Assembly: GCA_033980235.1 (NCBI GenBank)
Contig: CM067067.1
Span: 1,364,001 to 1,428,000 of the forward strand
DNA: 64,000 nt
Direction: 5' to 3'
From: Diadema setosum
Taxonomy: Eukaryota; Echinodermata; Echinoidea; Diadematoida; Diadematidae
Each line of letters starts with the position of its first letter. Positions within the stretch are counted from its first letter, which is position 1. Shown one piece after another: positions 1,276-31,510 of this stretch. A program made the position numbers and the translations under genes. Under the pieces are notes generated by a model, which saw nothing but the letters and a program-made list of their open reading frames with translations, ran no database searches and had not been told where the DNA came from.

Positions 1276-1278
1276 CCT

Positions 1279-2690: not shown

Positions 2691-2733
<43 letters not shown>

Positions 2734-2734
2734 G
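2691..2734. repeat. (CA)n microsatellite
   Basis: Nearly uninterrupted CA dinucleotides. Valine/cysteine-rich open frames across it are artefacts of the repeat. Confidence 0.95.
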
Positions 2735-3824: not shown

Positions 3825-3844
3825 TATGTTGTTGCTGTTATTGT

Positions 3845-3876
<32 letters not shown>

Positions 3877-3990
3877 TTGTTGTTGCTGCTGCTGCTGCTA
3901 TTGCTGTTGCTGTTGTTGATGTTAATGATAATTCATAATTAATGATGATGATGCTGTTGCTGTTATTGATGGGTTGTTGTTGTTGTATGC
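3825..3990. repeat. (TTG/CTG)n trinucleotide-rich tract
   Basis: Long runs of GTT/GCT triplets (TTGTTGCTGCTGCTG type) with interruptions, ending in an ATGATGATG section. Imperfect trinucleotide repeat. Confidence 0.9.
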
Positions 3991-12020: not shown

Positions 12021-12459
12021 AAAAAAAAAATAGTGCCGGCTTCGGAAAATGTCGCAATGGAGTGTCGTCAACATTACAAAATACAGTAATTTAGAATACA
12101 TACTAGTAATCACGTGAAGCTCACCAATCACTAAAGGATTATTTTTTTTTATCTCAAATATAATACCTCATAGTTTTGTACATTGTGTTCGTCACAGAAT
12201 TCTCAAGGACAATATTGTGAGGTTTGGCACCAAACCGAGAGGACAGAATCCCTAACTTTCTGTTATAGGGATCGATCTGCGATACCGATTACTGTACTAC
12301 CGGTTCTTCGTACACATAATAGCCATGATAATTGTGCATGTGCGTCGTACTCCGAGCTAGCTCCGTACGTCCCTTTCCTGTAAAAAGTCAGGCATACAAA
12401 ATTTTTCCTGTGCCGCTTTAAGTGTGCAGTTTTGCGACGAGTGAGACGCTACATTCATT

Positions 12460-12494
12460 ATGGACTCGAAGAAGACGATTGAAATCGAATACTG
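12460..12494 (+). CDS. SELENOW2: SelW2 exon 1 (coding part)
   Basis: Codes for MDSKKTIEIEY plus TG of Cys12, followed by the strong donor GTAAGT at 12495. The frame and the C-x-x-U continuation only make sense when joined to 23027. This ATG is the first in the exon and gives the normal short N-terminus of SelW proteins. Confidence 0.88.
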
Positions 12495-15400
12495 GTAAGT
12501 ATAGTGTGTTATAGAACTACGTTGCTCTTGGACAATCTAGACGAAATTATCTAGACTTGTTGACTCTGTATGATATGACGAGTACAGTTGTATGCATTAC
12601 TATTTTTGTAAGGCTTCTTCTCTAGGGCCGGTTCACTTCCGACAGCTGCTAGCGAGCTGCCGCTTCGTATGCATCACGCAGTGCAACTCTCGCAGCGGCA
12701 CCGGACCTGCGGTTGTTGATTTTCGGCAGCCGCTCGCCACAACAAAAGTTGCGTGCGGAGAACCAGCGCAGGCGCGGCAGCAACGCCAGATCTTTTGTGT
12801 CGTTACAGCTTGTTGGCCAATCACAGAACAAAATTATAATCATGCTGCAGCAACTCGCAATCATGTGATGGTGTTATTGTAAGCAATATGGCGGCCATGC
12901 TGCAATCGCAGGAGAGCAGACGCTTCAAAAGTGACGGTGATAAAATGGCTACCTCACATGATGATCACGGCTGGACGCACAACAAACTACTAGAATTGGT
13001 TGAAATCTACAAAAGTCTGCCGTGTCTGTATGACAACACAAGTTCCGGCTACCACAATAGAGAAGAGCGAGCAAGATCTTGGGTGGATATTGCTGATCGA
13101 ATGGGAAAAGACGGTGAGTTCTGTGTATGTGAAGACAACAAGCCTTCCTGCTGACACGTTTGCACTGCTGGTGTAACAACAGTGCAGTGGTGATCATGTA
13201 ACATGTGCGTATAAATTTGCATGAATGTTGTGATGGGATGTAAATTTTACTGTAGATCCTATTGTATTAATATTTCCAAAGATTTAGGCCATACGACGTT
13301 TCTACTCTTTGGGTGGCGTTTTTGCTTGGCGAGAGTTTTTTCTTTTAGTATTGTCAGAGCTTACCAAAAAAAAAAAAAATGAAACAATAAAAATTTCTCT
13401 TTTAATCTTTTTTTTTTTTTTTTTTAAATTCTAAAGTCTCTTCTAGATTAGATGTAAAGCATGGACTCTGGTATTGATATTGGTAGGTCTCATGAAGGGG
13501 CGTAATCCACAGACCTTGTCAAAAGTGCCGTTTCATCTAAACTACAAATAGAACCCTATTCATGTTAAAGTCAGATGATTAACAAAGTAGAAAACTAGAA
13601 AACATAAAATTTAATTAGTCAAGATTTTAAAGTTTTTGTACAATCTAAAAACAATATTTTTGCTTCTAGCTGAAGTTGATGAGGGGGGAAAATGTTGTCT
13701 TTCACCTTTTAAGAAAGACTGACATACTTGCATGAGTAATGATCATCTGCTCTCTTTTTTTTCTTTCTTTCTTTCTTGTTGAAATTCATTTCAGACCAAG
13801 AGCTGATAGTGATGGATAAATTGCGTTGTAGTTTTCACAAGATTACAAAGCAATTGGCTTTTTTTTATTGAAGTTCTGGAAAGGAAAAAGAAAAAAAAAC
13901 TGCCTGTTTTCATAATAAGACAGACTGACATTTAACTTGTATGACTATCTTTTCTTTATACTGGTAATCAATTTCTTAATTAGACCAAGCCAAGTAGAGT
14001 TAGCATTGCATCTCCTGCAGTCCTCACCTAACAAAGTTGTTTAGAGATCCTATTCACACATCAATTCAGCAAAAACAAAAAATTTCTCCGAGAAGGCTTT
14101 TAAAGTTTTTTTTAAGTTTAAGATCATTAGATTCAGATAGCTGTAATTTGTTGTCAACTAATAGATCTATCTTTCTTTCAGAGGAGGAAGTGCGTGCCAA
14201 GATGAAAAGCATCCGGACACAGTATGCCCGCATCATTCAGAAGGGACAGCATCCCAAGTGCAAGACTGCATTCACTGTGTCATCTTGGTGGCTCCTCCCC
14301 AAACTCAGCTTCCTGGATGACTTCATAATACCCCGCAAGGCTGACTCCGAGTCCATCAAAGTAATTAGAAAAAGAAAAAGAAATGACAGTCCGTTTTACT
14401 GTCTATGCCATTTGTTCAGTCGTTCAATTCAAGTGAAGAATAATAACCCACCTGTGGCTTATATCAGAAGCGGATCTAGAGGGGGGGGGGGGGTTGGGAG
14501 GGTTGCAACCCCCCCCCCAAAAAAAAAAAAAAAAAAAAAAAAATCCGGGGGCCATTTTTTTTTTATCTTATCTTTTTTTTTAACTTGTAATTTTATTTTT
14601 TTTTTTCTATTTATGGCAATGACCTCTATACCCAAAATAGTGATGTTTTAGATGCAAGAAAACGCCATTTTCACACACAGATTTTCAAAAATTCTCCCTA
14701 CTGTCGGAGGGGGGACACCCCCCTCCCACACCCTCCCCCCCTCGCTCGCTCCACTCGCTCGGGCTCGGTCGCTACGCTCCCTCGCATACCGCCCCAACCC
14801 CCTCCTTTATAAAAAGCTAGATCCGCCCCTGTATATACTGACACCAACCTGTGTCATTGTACTGGCCCAGTCCCTTTAAAGGGGAAGGCTAGTAACTGAT
14901 CAGTGGGAATCAGTGGAAATGCTGGGGGATGATTGTTCCAATCCTTGTGGGATTCATTCAAGAGTTCATTGTATATCTATTGTTGTGTGAAAATGATTTG
15001 CTTCAGAACGGTCTCATATTCAAGTAATGTGCAGATTAATGCTCCGTCACTGACCAGGGACGCTAACCTGGAAGCATTAAACTGCACATTACTTGAATAT
15101 GAGACCATTCTGAAGCAAATCATTTTCACACAGCAGTAGATATATAGTGAACTCTTGAATGAATCCCATAGGGATTGGAACAATTATCTCCCAGCATTTC
15201 CACTGATTCCCACTGATCAGTTACTAGCCTTCCCCTTTAAAGTTATAACACTTCCATTGCCTGTGGCTTTATACACATGTTGGTGCAATATTTATGGAGC
15301 TTTTAATATTGTTATCCTTTGTCTGACAGTGTGATTTTTCCTTTTCCATTGTTTCTGATGTGTCTGTGTAGGTTTTATCAGGCATTGAATCAAATGTACT

Positions 15401-16935
15401 GGTTGATGGGTAGATATCTGTCTATGAGGTGTTGAGCAGTAACTCGTATCACTACAGGAGAGATTGGATGTGTTGGAACAAGACCAGAAATAACTTTTTT
15501 TGTGCTCCTTTCAGTTTAACTTTGCAGAACTAACCCACAGGGCAAAGCGACGTGTGCTTGGTTTGTAAACTGAGTTAAGCAAGCAGCTTAGAAATGAATA
15601 ACAAATGAGCACATTTCATTGATGTACTCATGAAGTTTCACATTGTTTGTTTGTTTGTGTATTTTATCCATTGCAGGAAAATGACTTGCTTGAATCATCA
15701 GTGAATGGAGATATAGCAGATATAATATATGACAATGTGGCTTCTGAGTCGGACATCTCACAGCCTCCAATAAGCACAATCAATACCAATCCATCTCAGC
15801 TAGACCAGCCTATATCGTTGCCCTCTTCCTCAGCATACCAGACACAGTACACCAGGAGAATCTCCCCAATATCCATCTCAAGACCGTCCATATCTCAGTA
15901 CCGCAGCAGCAATAGGTTAAAAGTACGCAGACCACTCAAGAAACTGAAAAAGGACCACACTCCCCTCGTGGATGCCCCTTCCTCATCTACGAAAAGCAGC
16001 ACAGAAGAGATGAGCAGCAACCTGCTACTGAAGACCGTCCTGACGTTTGCCGAACGCACATCGCAAGAGGAGGATGAGGATGCTGTGTTTGGTCGCTATG
16101 TGGGAAACGAGATGAGAGGAGTGACTGACATTCAGGCCAAGCGCATCGCCAAGATGAGGATCCAGAAAGTGCTCTTTGAGGCACAAACAGGTTGGACTGA
16201 GACGTCAAACGAAGGAATCTACCATGCTCCAAGAGATGGGGATGGGACTCACACTCAGGATGGCTACCCTGTGGGAGTGGTGTGTGATACCAACAACAGC
16301 AGGATTCTGTGATGATAGGACTAGGAATTCCAGACTCGCAAAAAGTTTGCCTGGCAGCCTCTCTGTTCCTCTTATAATTAAACAATTATTGAAATGTACA
16401 TGTACAGGTTACAGGATAAAATGTGTTATATTTTTATCAGTCTGAAAGTAAAATTTAAGAATGAGACAATTGTGTGTCTCATCAAAAAATGTTGCCGCAG
16501 AGACTCTGGGTGTTTTTTGTTTTTGTTTTTTTCGAGAAATGCAAAATAAAGAAAAGAGGGAATTTATAGTAGTAGCATCAGATAGGAGTATGTTGTATAA
16601 GCAGGTGCAGGGTCATCTCATTTATAGTGAGGTTGGGTGCAACAAGAATCTGCTTTTAACAAGGTGAACTGTTTGGCCCAAACCCTCCTTTACTTGTTAT
16701 CCTATAGGAATTGAAGTTTCTTTTATTGCAAGATAAACTTCGGGCCAAAAGACAAAGAAAAACAAAGAAGAATTTGTGCATATATCACAAGGCAAACTTT
16801 TCTGAAGGTCCTGAACCAAACATGGCAATACAGAATGTATATGCGGCATGTCAAAAACCAGCAAACTCGTGTTGAATAACCACTCTCTATGCTTGTCAGC
16901 ATTTTCACTGCATAAGTTGACGTATGCCATTTCTC

Positions 16936-16972
<37 letters not shown>

Positions 16973-19147
16973 TTATTATTTATAATGCGCCTTTCCCACA
17001 AGGCCCAAAGCGCTTACAATCAATTCAAAACATGTACGACAGTATGTGTAATTGGATAAATGTTATATATACAGCTACGAACTAGTTGCTACTGAAAAGA
17101 TGTGTTTTCAAGGCTTTTTTGAACACACTGACTGATGGAGACTGTCCAACGGTAAGTGGTAAATTGTTCCAGTGCTTTGAAGCAGACACAGTAAATGTCC
17201 TATCACCGGCTAAGGTTTAGCCATCTGGTTGAAGCATTGAGGTCATCATGATAAAAGCGGCAGGTTTTCTGCTTTTTTTCCTTCAGCTGTCATGTGGAAA
17301 TGTTTATGAAATGGATCGATGCAGAACTTCTTATTCTGGTCTTTAGTGTAGGGTTTGTTTCTAAGAATTCTCCAAAAGGCGCTGGATAAAAGGTGGTATT
17401 TTCAAGCTACATTGGCTTTCCTTGTAATATTCTCCACAGCTCAAAGAATAGCAATGAACTCATTACTGTGTCACCATAAACATATCTGGGCAATTATTCC
17501 GCAAAGACAAATACACCCCCCCCCCCCCCATCCCCCCGCCTTGATACTGGTTAGTGCTGAGGTTAGAGTACAGATTAGGGTTAGGTTTAGGGGTAGAGTT
17601 TGGGCTAGGGTTAGGATTAGGTTCAGGATTATGATTAGGGTTTGGGTCAGGGGAAGAGTCTTGGATAATTGTCCAGGGGGTAATTGCCCTTGAACATCAT
17701 AAATTGCCAAAAGAATGTCAGTATGCTTCCTTTGAAGGGCTGTCATGGAAGGAGGGGATGATTACATAATGTGATATGTTGATGCTCCCTGCAGATTGAT
17801 TTGGGGATATTTGCATCATCATGTGGCTTCTCTTTCATCAGAGTAGGAGATTAGTTTATACAGTTATACGTGACAATTTTGTTGTTGTTGATACTGTATT
17901 TTTCCATGTGAGCAACATTTTTAGGTGTGCTGTTTCAATTTCCATATTTGTAACAGAAACACTGAACATGAAATCTGTAATACTGGCTCCCTTAGCCCAA
18001 TAGTTTCAAGTTTATTTTCACTTATTTCAAAGGGAATATAAAATCTGCAATGTTTTGATGATTTGTACAAATTGTGAAGAAGCCCTAGAATTGACATGAA
18101 ATCACAAGAACTGGATGATGAACTATAAAAGCCCTCAGTAAATATGTGACACGAAAGTGAAGTACTTGTGGCATAAGATCTCGTGTTGAAAACATGTCTC
18201 AATCATGGATTCTCTAATAAAGATGACAGTAAATACATTTTGAGTATTCAAAGATATTTCAAGTAGTATGTCATACTGTAAAACATGATATATTCGCGGC
18301 ATGAAATTTCGTGAATTGGAGCCGACAGCCTTCTTTGCGGCATGAAATTTTGCGAATTGCCACTGGCATTCAGTGCATATAGTATAGACAAGAACTTTCA
18401 TGTGCATTTTAATTTTGCAAATTTTGGCGCTCGCAAAATTCACAAAATTAAAATGCATGCGAACATTCCTCGTTTTACAGTAATTTCCTGCTATTCCTGT
18501 TTCTTGGTACATACTCTACTTGTATTTTGGGCTTCAAGGTAAAGCATAGTTTCCATACACCTGCAGAAACTGTCGATTATTGCTCTGAAATGGACATTTA
18601 GTTAAAAAAGTGCAGTAATGCTTTGAAAATAGGATTTCAGTTGCATAAGATGAAAATGTGAATTATAAGCCAAAAAGATACACCGACAGTATTGCAGTTT
18701 GAGAACATGTACCTGATCATGGTTGCTAAGTAATGTTTTACAATTGATTATTCACAATCAACAAATCGGGCCACAGCAGTATCCATCGACTTTCTGCGCG
18801 AGAGTTGGAAATATGATTGCTACATGGCACAAGCTATTATCACAAAATATTCTACTTAAGTACTACTAAACAGGGAGGGCTCTTCAAGAATAAAAGTTGT
18901 ATGCAAACAGTCAAAATTACTATACTCTTTTTGTCCTAAAATACTCCAAAATGATTCATTAGGCAAATTAATCAGGCTTGTATGATTTTTTTTTTCTGAT
19001 GAGAAGGACATACAAGAATGTCTGACTGTCTTTAGTGTAACGTAATAACAACTCAGTTCAATATGATAGTGTAATCATTCACATCCCTAAGATCAGCTAA
19101 CTTACAAAATGTATTTAATAGATCTAGGGAAAATCATTACATTATTA

Positions 19148-19218
<71 letters not shown>

Positions 19219-22200
19219 GTATTATTATTACAATGTGTTATGATAGGCACAATATTATGTACACTCAGAATCCAAGGTACTACCATACTATTTTATGGAA
19301 CACAATGAATCCTGACTTTTTAGACAAGTAAGATTTCATAACTCGTGTCTGTGAAGTTCTTGATCTGTCATGTGAATTTTCTTGCTTGATTACAGTACTT
19401 GATTCAGCAATTCTCACTGTATTTGGTACACCTGAATACAAATATTTGTGATTAAGAGAAGTTATGGTTATTTTTGTAGAATAAAATTTGCTTTAGAGAT
19501 AAGTCTTAGAAAAATATGTCTGGATTTAATGTTGTATCATAGCTTAATTTTTGTTATGCCTCCGCAACGAAGTGGCCGGAGGCATTATGTTTTCGGGTCG
19601 TCCGTCCGTCCGTCCGTCCGTACGTCCGTCCGTCCCGTTTTGTTTTTGTCGATATCTCAAGAACCGTGTGGTGGTTTTACATCAAACTTGGTATGAGGGT
19701 ATATCCTTGGGGGATAATACTTTGTGTGGATTTTAGGGTCACAGGGTCAAAGGTCAAAGGTCACAGGTTATTTTGTGAAAAAAAATTGAAATTCCACATA
19801 TTTCTCCATATCTCGCAGATGGTTCAAGGTATCTTCATAGAACTTAGTATATATGCTTGTACCGATGGGCAGTGATTATCTAGGGAAGTTGGGGGTCATG
19901 GGTCAAAGGTCAGGGGGTTCAAAGGTCAAGGTCAACTCCTCAAAATATCACTACTTTCCTTAAAATGCAATATGCCTGAAGGTTTTTTTTTTTTTTTAAC
20001 TGGATGTATGGCATGTATTACCCAATATATATTTTTGGGGAAGTTTCTTGCCAATAGGTCAAAGGTCAAAGGTCAAGTGAAAGTACTAAATTGCACTTTT
20101 TCCTCCATATCTCGAAAATAACTCAAGGTATCATCATGAAACTTACATATTTATGCATGTTCTACCTAACAGTGATTCTCTGTGGAACTGTGAGGTCAAC
20201 GGTCAAAGACCAGGTTTAGATAATGCTATTTTCCCATTTGATACTGAAATTATACTTTTTCTCAATACCTTGAAAATTACTCAAAGCATAAACTTATAAA
20301 AGGGTCAAAAGTCAAGTAGAAATCATTAGTTCCCCAAATACCTGCACTCTGACATTTGAATAATTCATCCAATTGAACCTAGTTCTAGGAAAGTGAACAT
20401 TCAGCACATTTGTGGCAAACCTGTCATTTTAATATTTTGCCAATTGTGTGAAACTGTCATCACACATTGTCAAGACATTGTACTATAGACCTATTAGGAG
20501 AACCATGCATGATGGCGGAGGCATATCAGTCGCCGTAGCGATATATCTAGTTACTCTTGTTTTTGTTGTGGACAATTCTCAATCCTTTTAACTGTACATG
20601 AAACACTTCAGAGAATGTTCATTGGATTCACTGTTTTGCCCATTTTTGTTGTAAATAGATTGTTTCTTCATTTCATGTACATAACCGATAATGTAGATGG
20701 TTAATTTGCACTGAGGGTGTATTGTCAGTCGTGACCATGTTTGTATTCATAATCTTATAAATTAAAGAATTTACATGTTTGATTGTAATCATGGTCTAAA
20801 AAAATTCCACACAACTCAACATTTTGAGTTGATTATGATGAACTTGAATGTAATTCATATAATGAAATAAATGGTTATGGCACACATTCATTGATGAAAT
20901 GTAATCAATGGTTATGGACTCCTAATATTGTTTGTAACAGAGTGGTGTGATCAATGCAGACATACTGAGGCTCTCACCCCCCAGCAGTGGCAACATCAAG
21001 AAAAAAGAGATCTAGGACATCATATCAGATTTCATCTGACAGCATGACATTTAATGTCCTACATACATAATATTAGATTTCATTTGATAATGTGACATTT
21101 AAAGTCCTACATGTATATTCTCTAGAGTTTGCACCTCTTTTCCTTTCCTTTTCCCTACTAGAAATACTGACATACAGTCAACCTTGTCTAAGTTAAATAT
21201 ATTTGGCCTGAAGAAATAGCTTTGACTTGGAGAAAAATCAAGTTATGAGGGATTAAAATCAATAGAATATAAAGAGAAGAGGACTTGAAAAGACCTTTGA
21301 CGTAGGCTATTATTCAACTTGCCGATGTCAACAGTACATGTGAAATTCATCATCTGATAAAAACAAAACAAATAAACAATTTAAAAAATAAAGAAGCTTG
21401 GTAAGATTTAAAAGCCAGTTGTCTTCAAAGACACTTTCGTGTACTGCCTTCACTTCCTTTATTGTTGACATGTGACAATAGTAAGTGTCAAGTGAGTCAT
21501 GGTGTAATATGCAATGAAAGATGATGAATTTCTCAGATGTATGACGGCACTGCTACTCTTCTTCTGTTTCATATTACTACCAAACATGCTAATGAATGTA
21601 TGGCACATACCAGCAGGCCAACTAAGTGGAAAGCACTATAAAATGGTAATATGGATCCTCATCAATAGATGTGAAGAGAGGTATCGAGTCAACAGTATTT
21701 GATATTGCCTGAACATCATCCTTTGAACTAACATTTCGATTGACAGATTTTGTGTGTGTGTATGTGTTTGTTTGTGTGTGTGTGTGTGTGTGCTTGTGTG
21801 TGCTTGTGTGTATAAATAAAGATTACTAGAAATAAAGTGTGTGTGTGTGTTTGTAAGGGTTTTTGTGTGATGAATGAAAAATCTGTGGGGGGAGGGGGGC
21901 AGGAGTTGTTTATTTGTTTCATTTCTGTTTTTGTTGTGTTTATAGTTTTTGTATTTGTTTGTTTGTTCGTTTGCGTTTTGCTTTAGAACTTTATTTTTAC
22001 TGGTTCATATTGTGGCATCATCCCTGCATTGTAAGTTTATAAATCTTCATGATACAGTAACAATGCTACTGTAGAAACTCACTGTGGGAAGTAGTGTGAC
22101 ATTTACAGCTTTCTTCAGTAAATAGAGGATGATATTGCAAGAAGTTTCTACCATGCTAAAGGGATAATATGAGATGTGCTGCACCTACAAAGGTGGTGCT

Positions 22201-25200
22201 TGGTGCAGGTGTCTTTAAAATTGCAGATCAAAGTTTTCAAAGACAAAACATGTACATATATACATGTGTAAATACATATAATGTGATATACATGTATATC
22301 TTAATTTGATACAAGTCCACTTTTGTTTAAGTTTATCAGGAAATCTTGCACTGCATAAGAATAATATATAATGTACGTAAGGTTCTGCATTTTATGAATT
22401 TATCAATATATTGTTAGATATCTTCAATTACTGTAAAACCAGTAATTTTCACATGCATGAAACTTTTGCGAAGGAGCTAAGATTTGCAAAAAGTTAAATG
22501 CGTGCAAAAGTGTTTGTCAACATTATGCCCTGAATGCCAGTGATGATGCACTAAAGTTTCATACCACAGAAAAGGCCATTGGCTCCAATTCACAAATTTA
22601 TGTTTCTGGTTTTGCATTATTATTTAGTACACTTGTACTAGTATCTTACATACATAGACATGTAAATTATGCATATTTTGTGTTGATATACAGATAAGGC
22701 TCTTATTAGCTAGGGAACAAATTTACTTTCTCCTCACTGGCAGATATTTGTAACCAACATGTATTCCAGTCACGAAAAAAAATGTTTGGAAATGGGTGAG
22801 GTAAGGGAGGGAAAAAAAATACTCATTTAAAATGTTTGCTCTGAAAGATTGCTTTCCAGGTCGTTTATCCCTGCAACTTTTTGTCGTAATAGAAGTCAAG
22901 TTCTGTTATTACTAACATTACACAGTGACTTGATGTACTATTTTAGATTGCTGATGTGGTTCCACTTGGTCAGCGTTGACTTGATGCCTAACCCACCAAA
23001 CCTGGTTCTTTCTTTCTATCTTTCAGTGGCTCCTGAGGGTACTACCCCCGCTTCCGGGAGCTTGCTGCCCAGCTGGAGGCGGCAGACAGTGAAGCGGTGG
23101 TTACCGGCAAGAAGGGCAGGTCATGTGAGTTGAGCAGTCCTTCCTTTCCTCTCCTCTGCAATGGAATAGTTTACATCCTCAAAAACGTGGTGCTCCTGAG
23201 CTCTGACTCAGCAGATGATTTCATCCACATCTCATGAGTACTTTCATATGCAGAAAGTCTACGAAGAGAACCACATGTATTGTTGAGTAATCATATGTCA
23301 AGGAGTGCTTACAGCTTGATATGGTCAATGTTGCTGCAGAATGTCAGTCAAGCACAAACAATGTGACTTGACAAAATGGCATGACTTGATCATTGATCAC
23401 TTGATACATTTTTGCTTCAATGAAACACAGTTGTGGTGAAGTTATCTCCTCTGATAGTAATTAAAAATAATGCAGAGAGGAGCGTTTTGCATTTCATGAC
23501 TTCATTTCAATATGAAATTAACAATCAAGAATCAATATACTTTGCAGTTTGTATCTGAAGTAGAAGTATGTTCTCAGTGTGTCTTTGATTGACAAGGTCT
23601 TCTCTTTTTTATTTTGACTTGTGATTTCCAGGTCCTCCAGCCCTCACTCATTATATGTTTCTTTCATATTTACATGTTCTTGTTCTCAGCTTCATTCGAA
23701 GTGAAGATGAATGGCCAGGTTATGTTCTCCAAACTCGAGTCTGGAGCATTTCCAGACTTTGAGGAGGTAAGGTTATCCTGCTATTCTTGTCTAGTTTGCT
23801 AAGACTGAAGACAATACCAGTAAAATGTAATAAATGGAAATACTGTATGTCAGTATTAGGAGAGGAGGTTTGTGGAAGAAGTGGCCATAGTTAATTCTGA
23901 AATATGTGACTGTAAGGTCCTACAATGTATGAAATTTCATTGACAAAATCTGTGAGACAGATTGTTTTCATTTACAGATATTAAGCAAATAATCAACGTT
24001 GGTGAAGGTGATGGGACAAACTATCACTTCCGAGGCGATCTGGATGTAGCTATCTTTCCGAAGCGCAGCTGAGGAAAGATAGCGTACACATTCAGATCGC
24101 CGAGGAATTGATAGTTTGTCTCATTGCCTGAAACTAAAAGTTGATTATTTCCTTTGTATTCCACATCTAGGGTCCTAAAAATTCCCATTTTATTCCACAT
24201 CTGAAACCGTTTTAGCTGTCTTTAGGTATCCTTAGGGCAGGGCTTAGGCTACATGTGCGCATAGATGATAAAACAATGAATTTGCTGCGCACACCGCGTG
24301 GCACTGAAGTGAAAGTGCGTTGCACTGTGTACTATCAAGTGACCTAGTTAAATGATAGTCCACAATGCAACGCACTTTTATTTCGCGCGTACTCATCTCA
24401 CGTTAAGACTGTATGGACTGCCAGAGATCAGCAAAACAAACAGCTGTCTTTATAGATGACAAAACAATGAATTTGCTGCGCGCACCACGCGACACTGAAG
24501 GGAAAGTGCATTGCACTGTGTACTATCAAGTGACCTAGTTCTTCTCAGGTGATGTGATGGGCAAAACTACACTTTATCACGTGATCAGCTCTTGGCCAAT
24601 CCTATAGCAAGATTCTTAGTATGTGGAATATAATCCTTACTGTCTCTTTGTTTACTAACTTAGTACTGATTATGATTATTATCATTGTGAGCTCTATCAA
24701 AACTTACCTTCACTTGTATGTTTTATGATGTTTAATTCTATGTAAACACAAAAGGATATCATTGTTTGTTTTTTTCAGCTGATTTCCTGAGCTTCCACTC
24801 AGCTGGAAATACCAACTTTGTATACATTATTTCTGAATGAAACATAAAAGAAGTAATCTCTTTATGTAGTTTCAGTTAAAACCAATCAAACAGCATTCTT
24901 TTTGTTATGGGAAGGACTACATTTTTTCCCCCAAGCAATTTCATTTTGCTATATACTTAGCATCATTGCAACTTTGTAGATTGAAAACAGGTTTGTAGAA
25001 TGCACTCACACCATGTGTGAAAATAGAAAATTCTGTTTGGTAGCATACCATATTAACCTTTATATAATTTTGGCCTTGCTAGATAAAAAGCAAAAACAAA
25101 AACAAAAAACAAATTGAGGTAAATTTTATTCAAGGGAGTGGAGTCCAAGTATTACTCGTGTTCTCAATAGTGGGGTTTTCAGCAGTTTTGTGTCAAATTC

Positions 25201-25440
25201 CCCAGAATGGAAGGTTATCTAGCAAATGTTATTCTGCATTAGTGCATGATTAAAGAAACTGTATGCAGTTTCTGTCTTTAGTGCATTTACAGAACATTGC
25301 ATTGATCCTGATTTGCCTGTTTGGTCTGTTTTTTGTTTGTTTTGTATGTCAAACAGGTCGTCGATGCTGTGAAGAATTACAAGGGTGAAGGGACTGTGCC
25401 AGTTGTGACAAAGACCGAGTCCATGTGCACCATCCTGTAG
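12460..25440 (+). CDS. SELENOW2: Selenoprotein W2 / Rdx12 (MIEN1)-type selenoprotein, four exons
   Basis: Joining 12460-12494, 23027-23124, 23690-23766 and 25357-25440 gives 98 codons (97 residues) if the TGA at 23034-23036 is read as selenocysteine. Every junction is GT-AG with matching phase (2, 1, 0). The Rdx fold is evident: beta-strand TIEIEY, redox motif C12-G-S-U15, GYYPRFRELAAQLEAA helix, VVTGKKGRSSSFEVKMNGQ, VMFSKLESGAFPDFEEVV and a C-terminal helix, ending CTIL. In the family, SelW uses CxxU, while the mammalian relative Rdx12/MIEN1 has CxxC and a CaaX box. Here CxxU and CaaX occur together. The likely role is a thioredoxin-like redox protein anchored to membranes by prenylation. 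Intron 1 is 10.5 kb and holds another gene. Reading TGA as stop would leave a 14-residue peptide, which the conserved downstream exons and the SECIS argue against. Symbol assigned by resemblance. Confidence 0.92.
12888..13113 (+). CDS. MADF gene exon 1
   Basis: Starts ATGGCGGCC and ends GAC G before donor GTGAGT (13114), phase 1. Confidence 0.8.
12888..16312 (+). CDS. MADF/BESS-domain transcription-factor-like protein, three exons
   Basis: Exons 12888-13113, 14182-14360 and 15677-16312 join in frame (phases 1 and 0) to 346 residues. The N-terminus carries a MADF (Myb/SANT-like DNA-binding) domain split over exons 1 and 2: KLLELVEIYKSLPCLYD, YHNREERARSWVDIADRMG, then EEVRAKMKSIRTQYARI and a WWLLPKLSFLDDF end. 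The middle is Ser/Pro-rich and low in complexity, with a basic patch (KVRRPLKKLKKD). The C-terminal part has a BESS-like motif, EDEDAVFGRYVGNEMRG then DIQAKRIAKMRIQKVLF. Family knowledge: MADF binds DNA and BESS mediates protein contacts, and many such genes are lineage-expanded or transposase-derived. It lies on the same strand within intron 1 of SelW2. Splice phases show it cannot be spliced in frame from SelW2 exon 1. The ATG at 12888 is first in the frame. Confidence 0.82.
14182..14360 (+). CDS. MADF gene exon 2
   Basis: Acceptor ATCTATCTTTCTTTCAG. The carried G restores Glu (DEEEVRAKMK). Ends ATC AAA before GTAATT, a weaker donor, phase 0. Confidence 0.8.
14465..14831. mobile_element. 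Short TIR element with G/C runs
   Basis: The left end CAGAAGCGGATCTAG pairs with the right end CTAGATCCGCCCCTG, about 367 bp apart. The interior has G, C, A and T homopolymers and no gene. TATAT flanks both ends. CAGNGGCGGATC-type termini recall hAT-derived non-autonomous elements. Lies in intron 2 of the MADF gene. Confidence 0.65.
14880..15236. mobile_element. Near-perfect palindromic MITE flanked by TTAA
   Basis: The left arm (AGGGGAAGGCTAGTAACTG...) is the reverse complement of the right arm over almost the whole 357 bp, so the same ~68-residue frame appears on both strands. TTAA flanks at 14876-14879 and 15237-15240. A sister copy lies at 40282-40637. Confidence 0.88.
15677..16312 (+). 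CDS. MADF gene exon 3 with BESS motif and stop
   Basis: Acceptor TTTTATCCATTGCAG. The frame begins ENDLLESSVNGDIADII and runs 211 codons to TGA. The BESS-like block is at about 16068-16180. Confidence 0.82.
   Translation, partial: ENDLLESSVNGDIADIIYDNVASESDISQPPISTINTNPSQLDQPISLPSSSAYQTQYTRRISPISISRPSISQYRSSNRLKVRRPLKKLKKDHTPLVDAPSSSTKSSTEEMSSNLLLKTVLTFAERTSQEEDEDAVFGRYVGNEMRGVTDIQAKRIAKMRIQKVLFEAQTGWTETSNEGIYHAPRDGDGTHTQDGYPVGVVCDTNNSRIL
16545..16550 (+). promoter_or_regulatory. Candidate polyadenylation signal of the MADF gene
   Basis: AATAAA 233 bases after the stop. Motif only. Confidence 0.45.
16939..16982. repeat. (ATT)n microsatellite
   Basis: About fourteen ATT triplets with one interruption. 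Confidence 0.95.
16984..17350. repeat. Dispersed-repeat-like sequence (AATGCGCCTTTCCCAC type)
   Basis: The string GCGCCTTTCCCACAAGGCCC followed by AAAGCGCTTACAATC and later AATTGTTCCAGTG-type sequence is characteristic of a widespread animal repeat adjoining microsatellites. Family name not known to me. Confidence 0.5.
17561..17656. repeat. Degenerate TTAGGG-like interstitial telomeric repeat
   Basis: Many GGTTAG/TTAGGG/TTTGGG-like hexamers (ATTAGGGTTAGGTTTAGG, GGCTAGGGTTAGGATTAGG) over ~95 bp directly after a C-run. The canonical vertebrate/echinoderm-type telomere unit is TTAGGG. Here units are diverged. Confidence 0.75.
18274..18482. mobile_element. TIR MITE (TACTGTAAAAC termini)
   Basis: The left end TACTGTAAAACATGATATAT is mirrored by GTTTTACAGTA at the right end, with inner GCGAATT/AATTCGC-like matches. 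A sister copy is at 30572-30744. TA-type ends suggest a Tc/mariner-derived element. Confidence 0.7.
18483..19138. other. Intronic non-coding sequence
   Basis: Lies in SelW2 intron 1. No exon-like or structured feature recognised. Confidence 0.5.
19139..19219. repeat. (ATT)n microsatellite
   Basis: About 26 ATT units with few interruptions. Confidence 0.95.
19553..20560 (+). repeat. Dispersed repeat, CCTCCGCAACG...GTCCGTCCG type
   Basis: Begins ATGCCTCCGCAACGAAGTGG, followed by tandem GTCCGTCC units (19605-19633) and repeated GGGTCAAAGGTCAAAGGTCA blocks. Ends GCGGAGGCATATCAGTCGCC then TAGCGATATATCTAG. This layout is common in marine invertebrate genomes. The arginine/proline-rich frame over it is a by-product. 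Confidence 0.7.
20561..21748. other. Intronic non-coding sequence
   Basis: Within SelW2 intron 1. Two near-identical ATCAGATTTCATCTGA/ATTAGATTTCATTTGA pieces at about 21024 and 21070. No gene seen. Confidence 0.45.
21749..21850. repeat. (GT)n microsatellite
   Basis: GT-rich tract in two blocks with interruptions. Confidence 0.9.
22428..22620. mobile_element. Diverged TACTGTAAAAC-type MITE
   Basis: TTACTGTAAAACCAGTAATTTTC at the left and a mirrored GGTTTTGCATTA at the right, with TTTGCGAA-like internal sequence resembling 18274-18482. More decayed than the others. Confidence 0.5.
23027..23124 (+). CDS. SELENOW2: SelW2 exon 2, contains the Sec TGA
   Basis: Acceptor TTTCTATCTTTCAG, donor GTGAGT at 23125. 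The first base completes Cys12. Then come Gly, Ser, TGA (23034-23036), Gly-Tyr-Tyr-Pro-Arg-Phe and the amphipathic helix, ending in VVTGKKGRS. The two other frames give the unrelated 22849-23133 reading, which is a shadow. Confidence 0.92.
23034..23036 (+). other. In-frame TGA selenocysteine codon
   Basis: TGA sits exactly at the second redox position of CGSU, which aligns with the Sec of SelW (C-G-A-U-G-Y). Conserved coding sequence and normal splicing continue for 82 codons beyond it. Confidence 0.92.
23690..23766 (+). CDS. SELENOW2: SelW2 exon 3
   Basis: Acceptor TTGTTCTCAG, donor GTAAGG. Encodes SSFEVKMNGQVMFSKLESG then AFPDFEE, the most conserved stretch of the Rdx family (FEV..NG..VFSKLE.G.FP). 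Confidence 0.93.
24009..24124. mobile_element. Foldback (hairpin) sequence
   Basis: ATGGGACAAACTATCA...GATCTGGATGTAGCTATC is mirrored by GATAGCGTACACATTCAGAT...TTGATAGTTTGTCTCAT around a short GAAGCGCAGC centre, with ~50-bp arms. Lies in SelW2 intron 3. Confidence 0.75.
24260..24543. repeat. Direct duplication of ~90 bp
   Basis: The block ATAGATGATAAAACAATGAA...TACTATCAAGTGACCTAGTT (about 24262-24350) recurs at about 24451-24542 with few changes. An inverted piece (AATGCAACGCACTTT) lies between them. Confidence 0.7.
25357..25440 (+). CDS. SELENOW2: SelW2 exon 4, CaaX terminus and stop
   Basis: The acceptor is TATGTCAAACAG. Encodes VVDAVKNYKGEGTVPVV, then TKTESMCTIL and a TAG stop. Cys-Thr-Ile-Leu is a CaaX box. 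Leu at the last position favours geranylgeranylation by the known rule, as in human MIEN1. Confidence 0.9.
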   Translation, partial: VVDAVKNYKGEGTVPVVTKTESMCTIL

Positions 25441-25673
25441 GAGAGTGGAAGATTCCAAACACTTTAATTGGCAAAGTGGACATCAGCATGAGATTGACTT
25501 CTGGGATATTCTAAAATCATAGTGGGGGGGGGGGGGGAGGGATAAAGATACACAGCAGGATTGCAAAAAGTCTGGTTTTCCTTGACCTCCATATTTTTTT
25601 TTACTGCCCTGTGCCGAGACTAAATATGTAAAGTCTTTGATGTCATCTATTTCCAAACATTTAAGGTATTACA

Positions 25674-25679
25674 AATAAA
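25674..25679 (+). promoter_or_regulatory. Possible early polyadenylation signal of SelW2
   Basis: AATAAA 234 bases after the stop, upstream of the SECIS. If used, the mRNA would lack the SECIS and could not support Sec insertion. Confidence 0.35.
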
Positions 25680-26116
25680 CAGAGCAGGTGTTTGAAGCCC
25701 GTGCACCTGTGTTCACCCAAAATTCTGAATGTCACATGCAGTAGAAATAGCAGCAGCTATTGTCCCATTTTTCTATGTTTGTAACACAATGGAATGATTA
25801 AAAATTCAGTCTTGTCTGTGTGGTAGCACAGCGCTAAACTATTCACTCTTGGTAGCCGTGAAGATACTTCCATCAGCAGCACCACCTACCAAAATAAATG
25901 CCAAATGACTGCAACTTAAAAGTCTAGGCTTGTATTAAGGCTATTTTGTCCCTCATTTACAATTCATTCCAAAAACTGTTTTGTTGATCCCATGATTACT
26001 GCCATAAACTGTGCAGAGTATCTTGAATTGTCCACTTTGCCTTTTGATGAATGTGTCTTTCATGCAGTCCTTTGTCCTGCTAGAAATCACACTGTTGCCT
26101 ATCCTCACCCACTCCT

Positions 26117-26193
26117 GACCCTGCCTATGACAAGCTGGATTGCAAGGGGAGTAAACCACTCCTCCTATCCAGGCTTTGATATTCCCATGGGTC
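26117..26193 (+). promoter_or_regulatory. SECIS element, type 2 fold
   Basis: Hand-folded. Helix I is GACCC (26117-26121) with GGGTC (26189-26193), followed by an internal loop. The non-Watson-Crick quartet is ATGA (26127-26130) against TGAT (26177-26180), giving U.U, G.A, A.G and C.U. Helix II is 26132-26140 with 26167-26176, 9 pairs and one bulged G. The conserved unpaired AA is at 26144-26145, 13 bases after ATGA. The apical mini-helix GGAGT/ACTCC (26148-26152 with 26158-26162) has loop AAACC. This order is the known type-2 SECIS layout. It lies 677 bases after the stop, in the 3'UTR of the only Sec-TGA gene here. Confidence 0.85.
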
Positions 26194-26365
26194 TGTGGAT
26201 GAGGCTAGACACCAACAGATTTTACTGCAGGTTTACTTTGCATGTGCTATTATGACCATTGCTATGTTTCAGATGTATCTTACTAAATAAGTGTAGATTC
26301 TGACTTTTTTTTTTCAAACATAAAGGGAAGGGGAGGATCAGTTAATAGATAGTGGAATCACAAAC

Positions 26366-26371
26366 AATAAA
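26366..26371 (+). promoter_or_regulatory. Candidate polyadenylation signal of SelW2
   Basis: AATAAA downstream of the SECIS, so a transcript ending here keeps it. Motif only. Confidence 0.5.
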
Positions 26372-26399
26372 TTTTAGAATTTAACACACGTTGTACCTA

Positions 26400-27492
26400 G
26401 TTTGTGTCTCAAGCAGAGGATGTACACATGTTTGAAGTTATGTGTCATCATTCTTTTCAGAATACCCTACCCATCAAGGAAAATGTTGGATTATGTCATT
26501 GTAGTAAATGTACATTGTATGCTGTTATGCAACAAGTTTCCTTCACAATTTGGAAATACTTAATACGGGTCCAGTGGGTGCTTTATGTGTGTATTTGTTT
26601 TATATTTTCACTACGTATCATGTGACTTTGAAAATGCTTTTTAAGCCCTAGAGCCTGTTCTTGCATTGCCTACATTTTGGTTTTAGTTTTCCTTCACTAC
26701 AGAAAGCAATGTAGGTGTAATCCTTTTTTGAATGACATTGTTTTTGTTTTGTTTTTTCCATTGCTTAAATGAATAGAATTTCCTGTCATTTATTGTGGGA
26801 TTTTTGGTATGCGGTGTTCAAGTGGTTACAGCCAATTTCCACAATTGATCATGGTATTCATTAGAAGTCTCATCTAATCCAAGCATGGCTTGTACATGCT
26901 CCCAAACGCCAGCAAATGCTATTAATGTCATGTTGTTGTTATCAAAAGCTCCACGTGTTTAGAAACCTCTATCATTGAAAAATATAGATTACTTGAAGGG
27001 AAGATGTTGTGTTACTCTTGGTTTTCTTCATTTTAATAAAGACTCGGTAGTATGGAGATTCGTGGGCGGTCAAATTCATTCGCTGTCCACCGGGGTACAT
27101 ACAAAAACCACAAACAGCTCTGGTTTAGCGAAAACGTGCATGGAAGCATATGCGCGTGGTTGGTGAGCTCCATCAAGATTCTACACATGTGTGTGTACTT
27201 GCATGAAGATCAGTTGTAAGCTTGTGCACAATAAAGTTCCGGGATTCTGGAATACACATTATATCTGAACCGGGCCAGCCTTCCCGTTCTGTGATATCCG
27301 AAACTGCATGGTCTTTATGGTAGTAAAGTGTGCCACACTGTCCTTGCCATGAGGAGATCTTTGAACTCTTGTGAGAAGGGCTCTTATTGTAACTCTCTTT
27401 CATTCATTTTATTTCATTCTTCAGGTAAAAATAGTAAGAGTTCAAGCGTTTATATATACTCAATATGTACAGGTATGAAAAATGTTTTTAAA

Positions 27493-27497
<5 letters not shown>
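26400..27497. other. Intergenic, no gene seen
   Basis: AT-rich unique-looking sequence. Frames at 26404 and 26975 have no recognisable domain or splice context. Confidence 0.45.

Positions 27498-27540
<43 letters not shown>
27498..27540. repeat. (AT)n microsatellite
   Basis: Uninterrupted AT dinucleotides. Confidence 0.95.
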
Positions 27541-27541
<1 letters not shown>

Positions 27542-27662
27542 GCATGTAACACATACAGAGCTACCAAGTCTCATGCATTGTGAGTGAGACAAGCATTTAG
27601 GGTCTGTCTCACGATTTCACGCATGACACCTATTTTTCTCACGCTTTGGGAGCATAGCTTAA

Positions 27663-28042
27663 AGGGATGGTACAGTCTTGGTTGAGAGGAAAATTGGGCT
27701 TTTAACTTTTTGCGAGATACCAAGAAAACACTTGTGAAATAGTACAGATCATACCATTTTAAGAGGAATTCAAAGTTTATTTGATAAAAATCGGGTTTGG
27801 AATGACTGAAACATCCAAAAACAAAGTAAAACAAAGCGATCGTATTAAAGTGTGGGTCCCACACTTATTAGAATCGCTCTGTTTTGGATATCTCAGGCAT
27901 TTCAAAACCAATTTTCATCAAATAAAAGTTGAATTCCTCATGGAGTTACATGCTCTTTCATATTTCACAAGAGGTTTCTCATTATCTTACAAAAAATTTT
28001 AGAAACCTGAAATTAGGTCTCAGCCAAAACTATACGATCCCT
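27663..28042. mobile_element. TTAA-flanked TIR MITE (AGGGATGGTACAGT family)
   Basis: The left end AGGGATGGTACAGTCTTGG is mirrored by CCAAAACTATACGATCCCT. TTAA flanks at 27659-27662 and 28043-28046. A close copy lies at 42290-42682, sharing the interior (TTTTGCGAGATACCAAGAAA, GTGGGTCCCACACTTA). Confidence 0.88.
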
Positions 28043-29166
28043 TTAAAGGATTAAAGTGAGAGTTGCAATTGAAGGCATATTTCCCTTTTGTCTTTCAAAA
28101 TAAGTAAAAAATAGTCACTTAAGTATGCGCCAGCTTGCACCATTAAGAGCTAAAGATTGAACAAGCTCCCTATACCGTGGGAGGGCGGACACACCCCCCC
28201 CCCCTCCCAATCACCTCCCCTCGTTCAGTTGCTTCGCTCCCTCGCTATGCACATGCGCGCGCGCTGAGATGCTGAGTCATGAAAATCTCACTCATAAAAA
28301 TTTTTTGAACTTGGCATCTATGCTCATACATGTATTTTGAGTCCTAATATTGTCTTAACAGCAATTTTAGGAAGGCAAGTTCACATCAACTTTGAGCTTT
28401 GGAACAATGACGATTAATGTTTATGATGAGAGCTTATTTTCACATACATGGCAAAATGGCCACTTTGGTTTCTGCAATCCCCCCCCCCCCCAAAAAAAAA
28501 AAAAAAAAGGTGGAGGCGAGACTAAGGGAATAAAGTGGCACGTTGTCATTGTTGGTCCAACGTCTCGCTATTATCAACATTTACCTTCAATACTCCTTTT
28601 GACAAATGACTTTTTAAATGTTACTACAAAACTCAAGTTTTGTTACAGATCTGCCTTTGCTTCCACATCAATACATATTAAGGGCTTTCCCCACCCGAGT
28701 TTATTTATTGTTGCTAATCTTTTTTATTAACGAGTGTCATTTTGTCACACTTCTTTTTTCACACCTAGGTACATATTGCTTTTGATTTTATTTCATTTAT
28801 CCATTTCGCATCATACTGTGTGCATTCAGAATTGTCCTAAGTGGGCAAGACACATGGTGGTTGTATGTTTCTTATGGTGTGCTTATGTGTATACGAATGA
28901 ATTTGTGAATACTGTACATGACTCATTACTACCTTATTTTGATATTTTTTAGTTGCACATAAAATCTGCAAAATTGGACATCCTGGACACAAAATCTGAA
29001 ATGAAATTTGAATGTTTGTTAAGAAATCAAATGTTTGATTTATGGTTATTACTATAGAGCTAATTTTGTTAGATATGTTTTTATGGTGTTTGGCTCAAGT
29101 GAGCTGCTGTCATGTGGGCCAAATCATTAACCTTCTACTTCTGCTTGTAGCATGCATCATATATTT

Positions 29167-29192
29167 ATATATATACTGTAAATGTGTATATA

Positions 29193-29253
<61 letters not shown>

Positions 29254-29262
29254 TATATATAT
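29167..29262. repeat. (AT)n microsatellite
   Basis: AT dinucleotides with a few interruptions. Ile/Tyr frames over it are artefacts. Confidence 0.95.
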
Positions 29263-29449
29263 TACATTACATCTTCTTAAAAACTGATGGATGGAACTTG
29301 ACCAAACACAATTATGTGGTAATATATAAAAACACAATTGAGTGGTAGTACCCCAAGGGGGCCCTACAGCTCATAGGGAAGAGCCCAAATATTCATCAGT
29401 TTTCATTACTTTTGACATGTAGGCCTACATCTTTTGAAAATGTCTTTAA

Positions 29450-29804
29450 GGGCATTGTTTACCATTTTCAGATGAAACAAAAACCCAGCTGTAGTGTTTC
29501 AACAGTTCTAAAATGAGAGTTTGGGATAGAAACAACTAATGTAAAAATTTCAATCAGTATAATCAATGTCAAAAGTTGTTAAATATCAAAATGTGAACAA
29601 TAGTTAAAATAAATATGTTTCTAGACTAGACTGTCTACAGTTATGGTTTACTTGGAAAATAGTAATATATCCTTATATTTTGCATTTTATCGTGAAATTT
29701 TTATATGGTAAGATGTTTTGTAATACAACTGACTTACACATATGCATCAAATGTGATATCTTGAACATTTTTAAAATCACTGCTCCCAATGGTAAACAGT
29801 CCCT
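29450..29804. mobile_element. TTAA-flanked TIR MITE (GGGCATTGTTTACC family), copy A only
   Basis: GGGCATTGTTTACCATT at left, AATGGTAAACAGTCCC at right, TTAA on both sides (29446-29449, 29805-29808). Copy B is uninterrupted at this point (near 49482), an empty site. Confidence 0.85.
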
Positions 29805-30571
29805 TTAAAAACCTGGCTCTAGATTTTGACCAAGCATTGCAGGAGTCAAAGAAAATGGATTACAGTGGGAAGGAACCATATGGGGGAGGGGGCGTCCATT
29901 TGATGGAGCCCATATACCCCAAATTAGATTTCTTCTTACATTCCTGACTTCTTGAAAACAAGTTTTGTTTTTGTTTTTTAATTTGACCAAATTTTGGAGG
30001 AATTATCAATGTAGGGGATTTATACTGTTCATAAATGGTGGTTTCCCATGGGTTGAACTGATAAACACTCAAATCAGGTAAATTTACTGTGTATTTGTAA
30101 TTTACAACCTTTCCTTAAAAAAAAAAAATGTCTGAATTTCAACCAAACTTTTGCAGGAATCCTCATTGGGGGAAAAAGATTTTATCTCGCACAAAATGGT
30201 TTTGGTGCCCATTTGGGGCTCAGATAAGCTTATACTCAAAATAATAAGGTGTTGCCCGGGGGACTACAGCAATCCATCATCAAATCACAAAATTTTCAAA
30301 ATAAAATTTGTAGTTAGCCTCGCATTGGAGTCCAAATGAGTTGACCGGATACCTGTGGGTTCCTTTGTTTTATTGCTCACAGACAGCTTGCCATTATTGT
30401 GTAAATAACCTGCTACAGCCATTAATGTATGGTTGTACTGTTTCATTCTTCTCCTTTTCTTTGATATCTATGCCACAGTTAACCTTTAATTCATGCATTT
30501 CTGTTTTAATTTTTGAGGTACACGTTTAGGCTTGATACGTCTCTATCCAACAGTATTCACTCTGTATAATG

Positions 30572-30744
30572 TACTATAAAAGATGATATATTCGCAGCAT
30601 GAATTTTTTTTTTTGCGAATTGCCACTGGCATTCAACGCATATAGTACAAATGTATAGACAAGAACTTTTGTGTGCATTTTAATTTCGCTTATCTTGGTG
30701 TTCGCGAAATGAAAAAGCCCGCGAACATTCTTTGTTTTACAGTA
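30572..30744. mobile_element. TIR MITE (TACTGTAAAAC family), copy A only
   Basis: TACTATAAAAGATGATATAT ... GTTTTACAGTA. Interior matches 18274-18482 (GCGAATTGCCACTGGCATTC). Copy B passes directly through (about 50310-50325), so the insertion postdates the duplication. Confidence 0.75.
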
Positions 30745-30896
30745 GTACACAAGGCTTCGCACTCGTGCCTCACTTTGACAGAGAGAAGGGGGGGGGTGCA
30801 AAATATCTTGTATGCCACTGACAACAATTTACATTGGTCCCAACATGACTGGATTATGATTAAGCATTTATTTGAATGCCAAAGAAGGGAAGCTTC

Positions 30897-30898
<2 letters not shown>

Positions 30899-30965
<67 letters not shown>
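30899..30965. repeat. (AT)n microsatellite, left side of foldback
   Basis: About 33 AT units abutting the foldback element. Confidence 0.95.
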
Positions 30966-30967
<2 letters not shown>

Positions 30968-31017
30968 GTGAAGCGGGCTTGGCCTCGTACGTGGTGGGTA
31001 CTGCATCATTGGTATAT

Positions 31018-31415
31018 GTGAGACGGAAGGAAAACTTGCAGTAAAGACGTTTGCAGTGGTGTTCAGTCTTGCCTTTATTCCCCGAGCTTTCGGCTATTTC
31101 ACTAGCCTTTTTCAAGGGCTTGATGAGACATAACATAAAAGCAAAAAAGCAACCAATTTGCATGCATTTGAACAGAAATAGAAATAGAAATAGTAATAAC
31201 AAGAAGCCAATCAAACGGAATATAGGCAGTGGCACCAATTCTATTTCTATTTCTATTTCTGTTCAAATGCATGCAAATTGGTTGCTATTTTACTTTTATG
31301 TTATGTCTCATCAAGCCCTTGAAAAAGGCTAGTGAAATAGCCGAAAGCTCGGGGAATAAAGGCAAGACTGAACACCACTGCAACGTCTATACTGCAAGTT
31401 TTCCTTCCGTCTCAC
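31018..31415. mobile_element. Foldback element with ~180-bp arms, copy A only
   Basis: GTGAGACGGAAGGAAAACTT (31018) is mirrored at 31396-31415. The arms stay almost identical to a centre near 31215 with GAAATA/TATTTC repeats. Each arm holds a small hairpin GGCTAGTGAAATAGCC followed by GAAAGCTCGGGG. (AT)n tracts lie on both sides, suggesting insertion into an AT tract. Copy B lacks the whole unit. Confidence 0.85.
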
Positions 31416-31419
31416 ATCT

Positions 31420-31431
31420 ATATATATTATA

Positions 31432-31510
<79 letters not shown>
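31420..31510. repeat. (AT)n microsatellite, right side of foldback
   Basis: AT dinucleotides with GTAT interruptions. Confidence 0.95.

What the first reader, a model, noticed from the sequence alone, without database searches (positions are those of the whole stretch)
12460..25440. A selenoprotein W2/Rdx12-type gene hidden by an in-frame TGA
Seen: four GT-AG exons join in phase to a 97-residue Rdx-fold protein, with TGA exactly at the second redox position (C-G-S-TGA-G-Y-Y). Known: SelW uses CxxU, while the mammalian relative Rdx12/MIEN1 uses CxxC. Inference: this animal keeps the Sec form of the Rdx12/SelW2 lineage. Standard annotation would give a 14-residue peptide or nothing.
Basis: partly seen in the sequence, partly recalled or inferred. 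Interest (0 to 1): 0.9.

Follow-up and report, generated by a model that had tools for sequence, protein, structure and literature searches.

The report
Selenium form of the MIEN1 protein
An animal gene that looks broken by an early stop signal is almost certainly an intact gene for a small selenium-containing redox protein, the selenium form of the human protein MIEN1; it is a sound new member of a known family rather than something new.

Summary
Four GT-AG exons (12460-12494, 23027-23124, 23690-23766, 25357-25440) join to a 97-residue Rdx-fold protein whose only internal stop is TGA at residue 15, in C-G-S-TGA-G-Y-Y. The best solved relative is human MIEN1/C17orf37 (5.6e-14; mouse SelW 0.0039), and the part after the TGA alone still matches MIEN1 (3.2e-9). 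Added here: (1) a form-II SECIS-like hairpin 688 nt after the stop codon, at 26127-26180, which Rfam did not call; (2) of 215 relatives examined, 37 have W at exactly the Sec position, 36 of them nameless predictions from lgn, jgi or ena, best read as TGA taken for tryptophan (their DNA was not seen); (3) many named fish entries are cut or garbled there; (4) a CAAX box (CTIL) ends the protein, as in MIEN1. In a tree of 34 chosen rows it groups with eight such W rows (99/97). Sec-form SelW2 is already reported in fishes, frog and some invertebrates. Verdict: a real selenoprotein W2 gene, a new member of a known kind; a probably lipid-anchored Sec redox centre is its most interesting side.

The parts
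12460..12494 (+). Exon 1: ATG to TG of the Cys-12 codon (MDSKKTIEIEYC), donor GTAAGT
   Evidence: in-frame stop upstream at 12442-12444
12495..23026 (+). Intron 1 (phase 2), 10.5 kb, holds a split MADF-domain coding stretch
23027..23124 (+). Exon 2, with the CxxU motif
23034..23036 (+). In-frame TGA, codon 15, read as selenocysteine (inferred)
   Evidence: W in 37 of 215 relatives at this column, 36 of them nameless lgn/jgi/ena predictions
23690..23766 (+). Exon 3 (FEVKMNGQVMFSKLESGAFPDFEE)
25357..25440 (+). Exon 4 with TAG stop at 25438-25440
25426..25437 (+). Codons of the C-terminal CAAX box CTIL
   Evidence: human MIEN1 ends CVIL
26114..26196 (+). Form-II SECIS-like hairpin; core AUGAC at 26127, unpaired AA at 26144-26145, minihelix, UGAU at 26177-26180, helix I GACCC/GGGUC
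   Evidence: not called by Rfam
26366..26371 (+). AATAAA, possible poly(A) signal after the SECIS (two more AATAAA, at 25674 and 25893, lie before it)
27035..27040 (+). AATAAA, second possible poly(A) signal after the SECIS

Best explanation
A functional selenoprotein W2 gene (Sec form of MIEN1/Rdx12). Shown by sequence: the intact four-exon gene, TGA at the second redox position, family membership, a SECIS-like hairpin downstream, a CAAX box. Inferred: the hairpin recruits the Sec machinery so that UGA at codon 15 is read as Sec; Cys12 and Sec15 form a reversible selenenylsulfide redox centre on a thioredoxin-like fold; Cys94 is geranylgeranylated so that the protein acts at the cytosolic face of a membrane, as described for human MIEN1, on thiol-regulated signalling proteins.
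For: Rdx domain E 6.8e-18, TIGR02174 CXXU_selWTH above its cut-off, MIEN1 5.6e-14 as best PDB match. Post-TGA part alone matches Rdx 5.4e-10 and MIEN1 3.2e-9; 24 of 82 post-TGA residues equal human MIEN1. SECIS-like hairpin: the only site found by the scan in 25441-27060; 15 of 1000 dinucleotide shuffles of that stretch reach its score, 0 of 1000 have all three helices as strong (cut-offs taken from the candidate itself, so only a guide); of 61 sites on both strands of the window it is the only one that meets those cut-offs. 101-nt fold -36 kcal/mol, 1 of 200 shuffles as good. It has AUGA_AA, the pattern reported for almost all invertebrate SECIS outside sponges (PMC3473315 passage). UGA-to-SECIS 936 nt; mammalian range 207-5207, mean 872 (PMC3316567 passage). 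W at the Sec column in 37 of 215 relatives, 35 of these 37 with Cys fourth from the end. One group with 8 W-type relatives at 99/97 in a tree of 34 chosen rows.
Against: No transcript, no DNA of a relative, and no Sec machinery of this genome could be examined (genome search gave no answer). Rfam's SECIS model gave no hit at the gathering score or at E up to 10. Two other sites in the window, one 36 kb downstream on the same strand and one on the other strand, have better overall scores than the candidate; the weights are my own. Two AATAAA lie before the hairpin, so a short transcript without it is possible. W in the relatives could be TGG; the second search was seeded with W, so 37 of 215 is not a frequency (6 of the 120 rows listed by the first search, seeded with C, have it). 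Among named fish entries P0172 has Gly and P0202 Gln at the Sec position in an otherwise full-length protein, and P0132 has C, which may stand for U in this database.
Confidence: 0.95

Rival explanations
1. A pseudogene, or a sequencing error, in a Cys-form MIEN1 gene: TGC or TGT became TGA and the gene is dying or the base is wrong.
For: Only TGA itself separates the two readings in this window; the assembly was not checked with reads.
Against: Frame, splice sites and CAAX box are all intact; a SECIS-like hairpin sits where one is expected; the nearest relatives also lack Cys there and have W instead.
Confidence: 0.03
2. TGA is read as tryptophan or by plain stop-codon read-through, without selenium, because the genetic code differs or leak is high.
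For: Nameless relatives are listed with W.
Against: Among the 215 rows W stands in one named entry only, P0190 (Arapaima gigas), whose N-terminus is not the family's; 64 named fish entries are cut, garbled or substituted there, most as expected for TGA read as stop. In the window TGA occurs once in the frame, at a redox position, and TAG ends it. A SECIS-like hairpin is present.
Confidence: 0.01
3. The TGA is a true stop and the full frame is made only from spliced forms that dodge it.
For: Of 10 AGs in exon 2 after the TGA, two (ending at 23089 and 23119) would restore the frame without a stop. Fish database entries show predicted isoforms that dodge the place (P0138, P0140).
Against: Both forms lose the whole CxxU motif and the helix after it, which are conserved in the W rows. 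Skipping exon 2 breaks the frame.
Confidence: 0.01

Closest known systems
MIEN1 / C17orf37 / Rdx12 (human, PDB 2LJK)
   Same: Rdx family, redox motif at the same place, NGQxxFSKLExGxFP stretch, C-terminal CAAX box (CVIL there, CTIL here)
   Different: CxxC in MIEN1, CxxU (TGA) here; 32% identical
Selenoprotein W2 of fishes and frog (SelW2a/b/c; PMC3316567)
   Same: Sec form of the same lineage; CAAX box in named fish entries such as P0109; intron 1 apparently inside the same Cys codon (inferred from database reads EYWY)
   Different: Named fish selenoprotein W2a entries are 40-42% identical over the post-Sec part (P0109, P0144, P0148)
Invertebrate SelW2 reported in Schmidtea, Schistosoma, Trichoplax, Ciona (PMC3828610, PMC2874816)
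   Same: Named SelW2 by their authors, in lists of selenoproteins (passages)
   Different: Their sequences were not seen here, so orthology is not tested
Selenoprotein W1 (mouse 2NPB)
   Same: Redox motif at the N-terminus (CxxU in the natural protein, recalled), Rdx fold
   Different: Much weaker match (0.0039 against 5.6e-14); the two SelW1 rows P0112 and P0119 have no CAAX box and form a separate branch with 100/100 support

Membership tests
Rdx family (PF10262 / TIGR02174) | Profile match above curated cut-off | tested here: met
   65.1 bits against 22.6; 60.6 against 34.2
MIEN1/Rdx12/SelW2 subfamily | Closer to MIEN1/SelW2 than to SelW1 | tested here: met
MIEN1/Rdx12/SelW2 subfamily | C-terminal CAAX box | tested here: met
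   CTIL; in 84 of 112 C rows and 35 of 37 W rows a Cys stands fourth from the end
Selenoprotein (eukaryotic) | In-frame TGA at a redox position with conservation after it | tested here: met
Selenoprotein (eukaryotic) | SECIS in the 3' UTR with GA/GA quartet and unpaired AA | tested here: met
   Features present at 26127-26180, found with my own scoring; that this stretch is in the mRNA is assumed
Selenoprotein (eukaryotic) | Rfam SECIS match | tested here: not met
   No SECIS family listed; I recall the Rfam model as insensitive, which was not tested
Selenoprotein (eukaryotic) | Sec found in the protein | not testable with these tools
   needs 75Se or mass spectrometry
Selenoprotein (eukaryotic) | Genome has tRNA-Sec, SBP2, eEFSec | not tested
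   The genome search gave no answer (8 tries)
SelW1 | Nearest to SelW1 | tested here: not met

The most novel reading that the evidence does not exclude
[quoted passage not shown] In the trees the Cys and W rows separate deeply, and the data reject neither a vertebrate clade (p 0.177) nor a clade of the window, its eight near rows and the fish rows (p 0.457), so a Cys/Sec split older than the tetrapods is open.
Probability: 0.5. Interest if true: 0.5.

Novelty: new member of a known kind. Interest (0 to 1): 0.33.

Why it matters
It corrects a gene that automatic annotation would cut at codon 14 or drop, supplies its SECIS candidate, and suggests that the Sec form with a CAAX box is widespread. 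That makes a simple question testable: whether a lipid-anchored Sec protein, and not the Cys protein studied in human cancer cells, is the original design of MIEN1, and what selenium adds to it.

Tried and rejected
Rfam searches for SECIS found none, at gathering score for the whole window and at E up to 10 for 25441-33000 and 25441-27200. The miRNA-family matches are all below their gathering scores; I take them for chance. My first two SECIS scans missed the site: one search placed the quartet one base off, and tied the AA too tightly to the fold; one search changed both, after those two had failed, so the scan was tuned by hand, though not to this site. Two other sites of the window score better overall (61348 on the plus strand, 43529 on the minus strand) but have a weak or no apical helix and do not follow this gene closely.

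The single-sequence protein search found nothing, although by eye P0113 shares several five-letter words with the query; I have no explanation. The profile searches worked: 321 and 603 hits, 120 listed each. The two lists together hold 215 different proteins, and only these were examined: 112 C, 37 W, 28 gap, 38 other letters at the Sec column. The 66 rows of the last two kinds are 64 named entries and 2 lgn rows (P0203, P0214), counted by hand from the listings. No row shows the letter U; two SelW1 entries that I know to bear U show C, so some C rows, P0132 among them, may be Sec entries. What lgn, jgi and ena stand for is not stated by the tool; I take them for environmental or transcriptome collections.

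The trees used rows chosen by me: 46 and 34. Rows labelled fish include four unnamed ones (P0069, P0078, P0083, P0121) that I placed there by similarity.

Organism not identified. No structure was predicted: the spliced protein is not contiguous in the window, and MIEN1 is already solved.

Papers: passages found by term searches were seen of PMC3316567, PMC2874816, PMC3828610, PMC3527542, PMC3965025, PMC3473315 and PMC6738349; no whole text. Of other papers only listings. Literature searches were made, which listed 1, 20, 15, 20, 20, 0, 11 and 4 papers. One search (selenoprotein, CAAX, prenyl, SelW) listed 20 of 31; by title none is about a prenylated selenoprotein, but subscription papers are not held.

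Full report
Observation. I read 12201-13200 and 22701-27500 and joined exons 12460-12494, 23027-23124, 23690-23766 and 25357-25440. All three introns are GT-AG. The product is MDSKKTIEIEYCGS-U-GYYPRFRELAAQLEAADSEAVVTGKKGRSSSFEVKMNGQVMFSKLESGAFPDFEEVVDAVKNYKGEGTVPVVTKTESMCTIL, 97 residues. Codon 15 is TGA and codon 98 is TAG; there is no other stop. An in-frame TGA at 12442 precedes the ATG. Of 10 AGs in exon 2 after the TGA, two would restore the frame, but both drop the CxxU motif.

Family. Pfam Rdx E 6.8e-18; NCBIfam CXXU_selWTH 60.6 bits over a cut-off of 34.2. The best solved relative is 2LJK, human C17orf37/MIEN1 (5.6e-14); mouse SelW is at 0.0039. The 82 residues after the TGA alone match Rdx at 5.4e-10 and MIEN1 at 3.2e-9, so the part that a real stop would discard has been kept.

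SECIS. A scan for NTGAN, a 9-14 nt arm, AA or CC, and NGAN closing a helix gave one strong site soon after the gene: AUGAC, AAGCUGGAUUGC, AA and a minihelix (AAGGGGAGUAAACCACUCCUCC), UAUCCAGGCUU, UGAU at 26127-26180, with helix I GACCC/GGGUC outside. This is the plan of a form-II element, as I know it. In 25441-27060 it was the only site; 15 of 1000 dinucleotide shuffles reach its score and 0 of 1000 have all three helices as strong, with cut-offs taken from the candidate. Of 61 sites on both strands of the window, no other meets those cut-offs, but two have a better overall score. The 101-nt fold is at -36 kcal/mol, z -2.76, 1 of 200 shuffles as good. Rfam's SECIS model did not list it. The UGA-to-SECIS distance is 936 nt, against a mean of 872 and a range of 207-5207 in mammals (PMC3316567, passage). 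AUGA_AA is reported for almost all invertebrate SECIS outside sponges (PMC3473315, passage). Two AATAAA lie before the hairpin (25674, 25893) and others after it (26366, 27035 and beyond).

Relatives. Profile searches gave 321 and 603 hits, 120 listed each. The 215 different listed proteins were aligned. At the Sec column 112 have C (by the motif CxPCGF mostly MIEN1), 37 have W, 28 a gap and 38 other letters. Thirty-six of the 37 W rows come only from lgn, jgi or ena and have no name (sources), and these 36 have the motif C-x-x-W-G-Y; the other is P0190, Arapaima, whose N-terminus is not the family's. The plain reading is that gene callers took TGA as Trp. The second search was seeded with W, so the share is not a frequency; the first, seeded with C, lists 6 such rows of 120. 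Of the 66 rows with neither C nor W, 64 are named fish entries. Some start right after the Sec codon (P0109, named selenoprotein W 2a, and P0114, P0144, P0148); others are garbled. Seven have WY at the Cys column; in P0138 and P0140 this reads EYWY, which fits reading through an exon-1 donor TG|GTA at the very place of the window's intron 1, so I infer that this intron is conserved. Against a simple picture, P0172 has Gly and P0202 Gln at the Sec position of a full-length protein; loss of Sec in single fish genes is known (SelW2c of pufferfish has Arg; PMC3316567). P0132, a named fish entry, has C, which may stand for U. The DNA behind the W rows was not seen.

Tree. With 46 chosen rows and 34 chosen rows the window protein groups with unnamed W rows: with P0113 (55% identical; 95/80), and in a set of nine at 99/97. 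SelW1 stands apart at 100/100. Neither a vertebrate clade (p 0.177) nor a clade of the window, its near rows and the fish rows (p 0.457) is rejected, so where the Cys form split off stays open. PMC3316567 supposes a split before the amphibians (passage).

Mechanism. Shown: gene anatomy, TGA place, hairpin, CAAX box. Inferred: Sec insertion through the hairpin; a Cys12-Sec15 redox pair; geranylgeranylation at Cys94, by analogy with MIEN1, whose CVIL end is described as a geranylgeranyltransferase-1 site and which is proposed to act on AKT at the membrane (PMC3527542, passages). In 35 of 37 W rows a Cys stands fourth from the end, so the pairing of Sec with a lipid anchor looks general.

Known or new. 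SelW2 is reported as a selenoprotein in fishes, frog and elephant shark, with Rdx12 as its Cys relative in mammals and other tetrapods (PMC3316567); of its SelW2 genes that paper counts only the duplicates SelW2b and SelW2c as vertebrate-specific. SelW2 genes are named in planarian, schistosome and Trichoplax (PMC3828610) and in Ciona (PMC2874816). This is therefore a new member of a known kind.

Noticed in passing
L001:4995-5225 (IMGVR_UViG_3300008952_002242, a 131,241-bp contig): A small Rdx/SelW-like gene with TGA at the second redox position (CGE-TGA-NY) in a contig filed as viral; one neighbouring gene matches phage family phrog_249, the small gene itself no PHROG. A CCCTTA/TAAGGG hairpin follows the TGA, but 28 of 200 shuffles fold as well. 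No match in 50,697 phage records. A phage-borne selenoprotein, or host DNA in the collection, is possible.
   Followed up: partly
12840-13154 and 14004-14651, + strand: Two parts of a MADF DNA-binding domain (PF10545) inside intron 1, same strand as the gene, perhaps a nested gene or transposon gene.
   Followed up: partly
23978-24384: Inverted repeats in intron 3 (three pairs, arms of 42, 32 and 23 nt), likely small transposons.
   Followed up: no
P0138, P0140, P0146, P0149, P0158, P0171, P0178: Fish entries in public databases with WY at the CxxU Cys column, apparently gene predictions that read through a splice donor to avoid the Sec codon (two of the seven read in full).
   Followed up: partly
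46198-47268, + strand: A 356-codon open frame with, by eye, three similar repeats of roughly 60 residues (PYDRLN.GFVL.VT.Q.KP.QPGQ.NPTED); no Pfam family above its cut-off.
   Followed up: no
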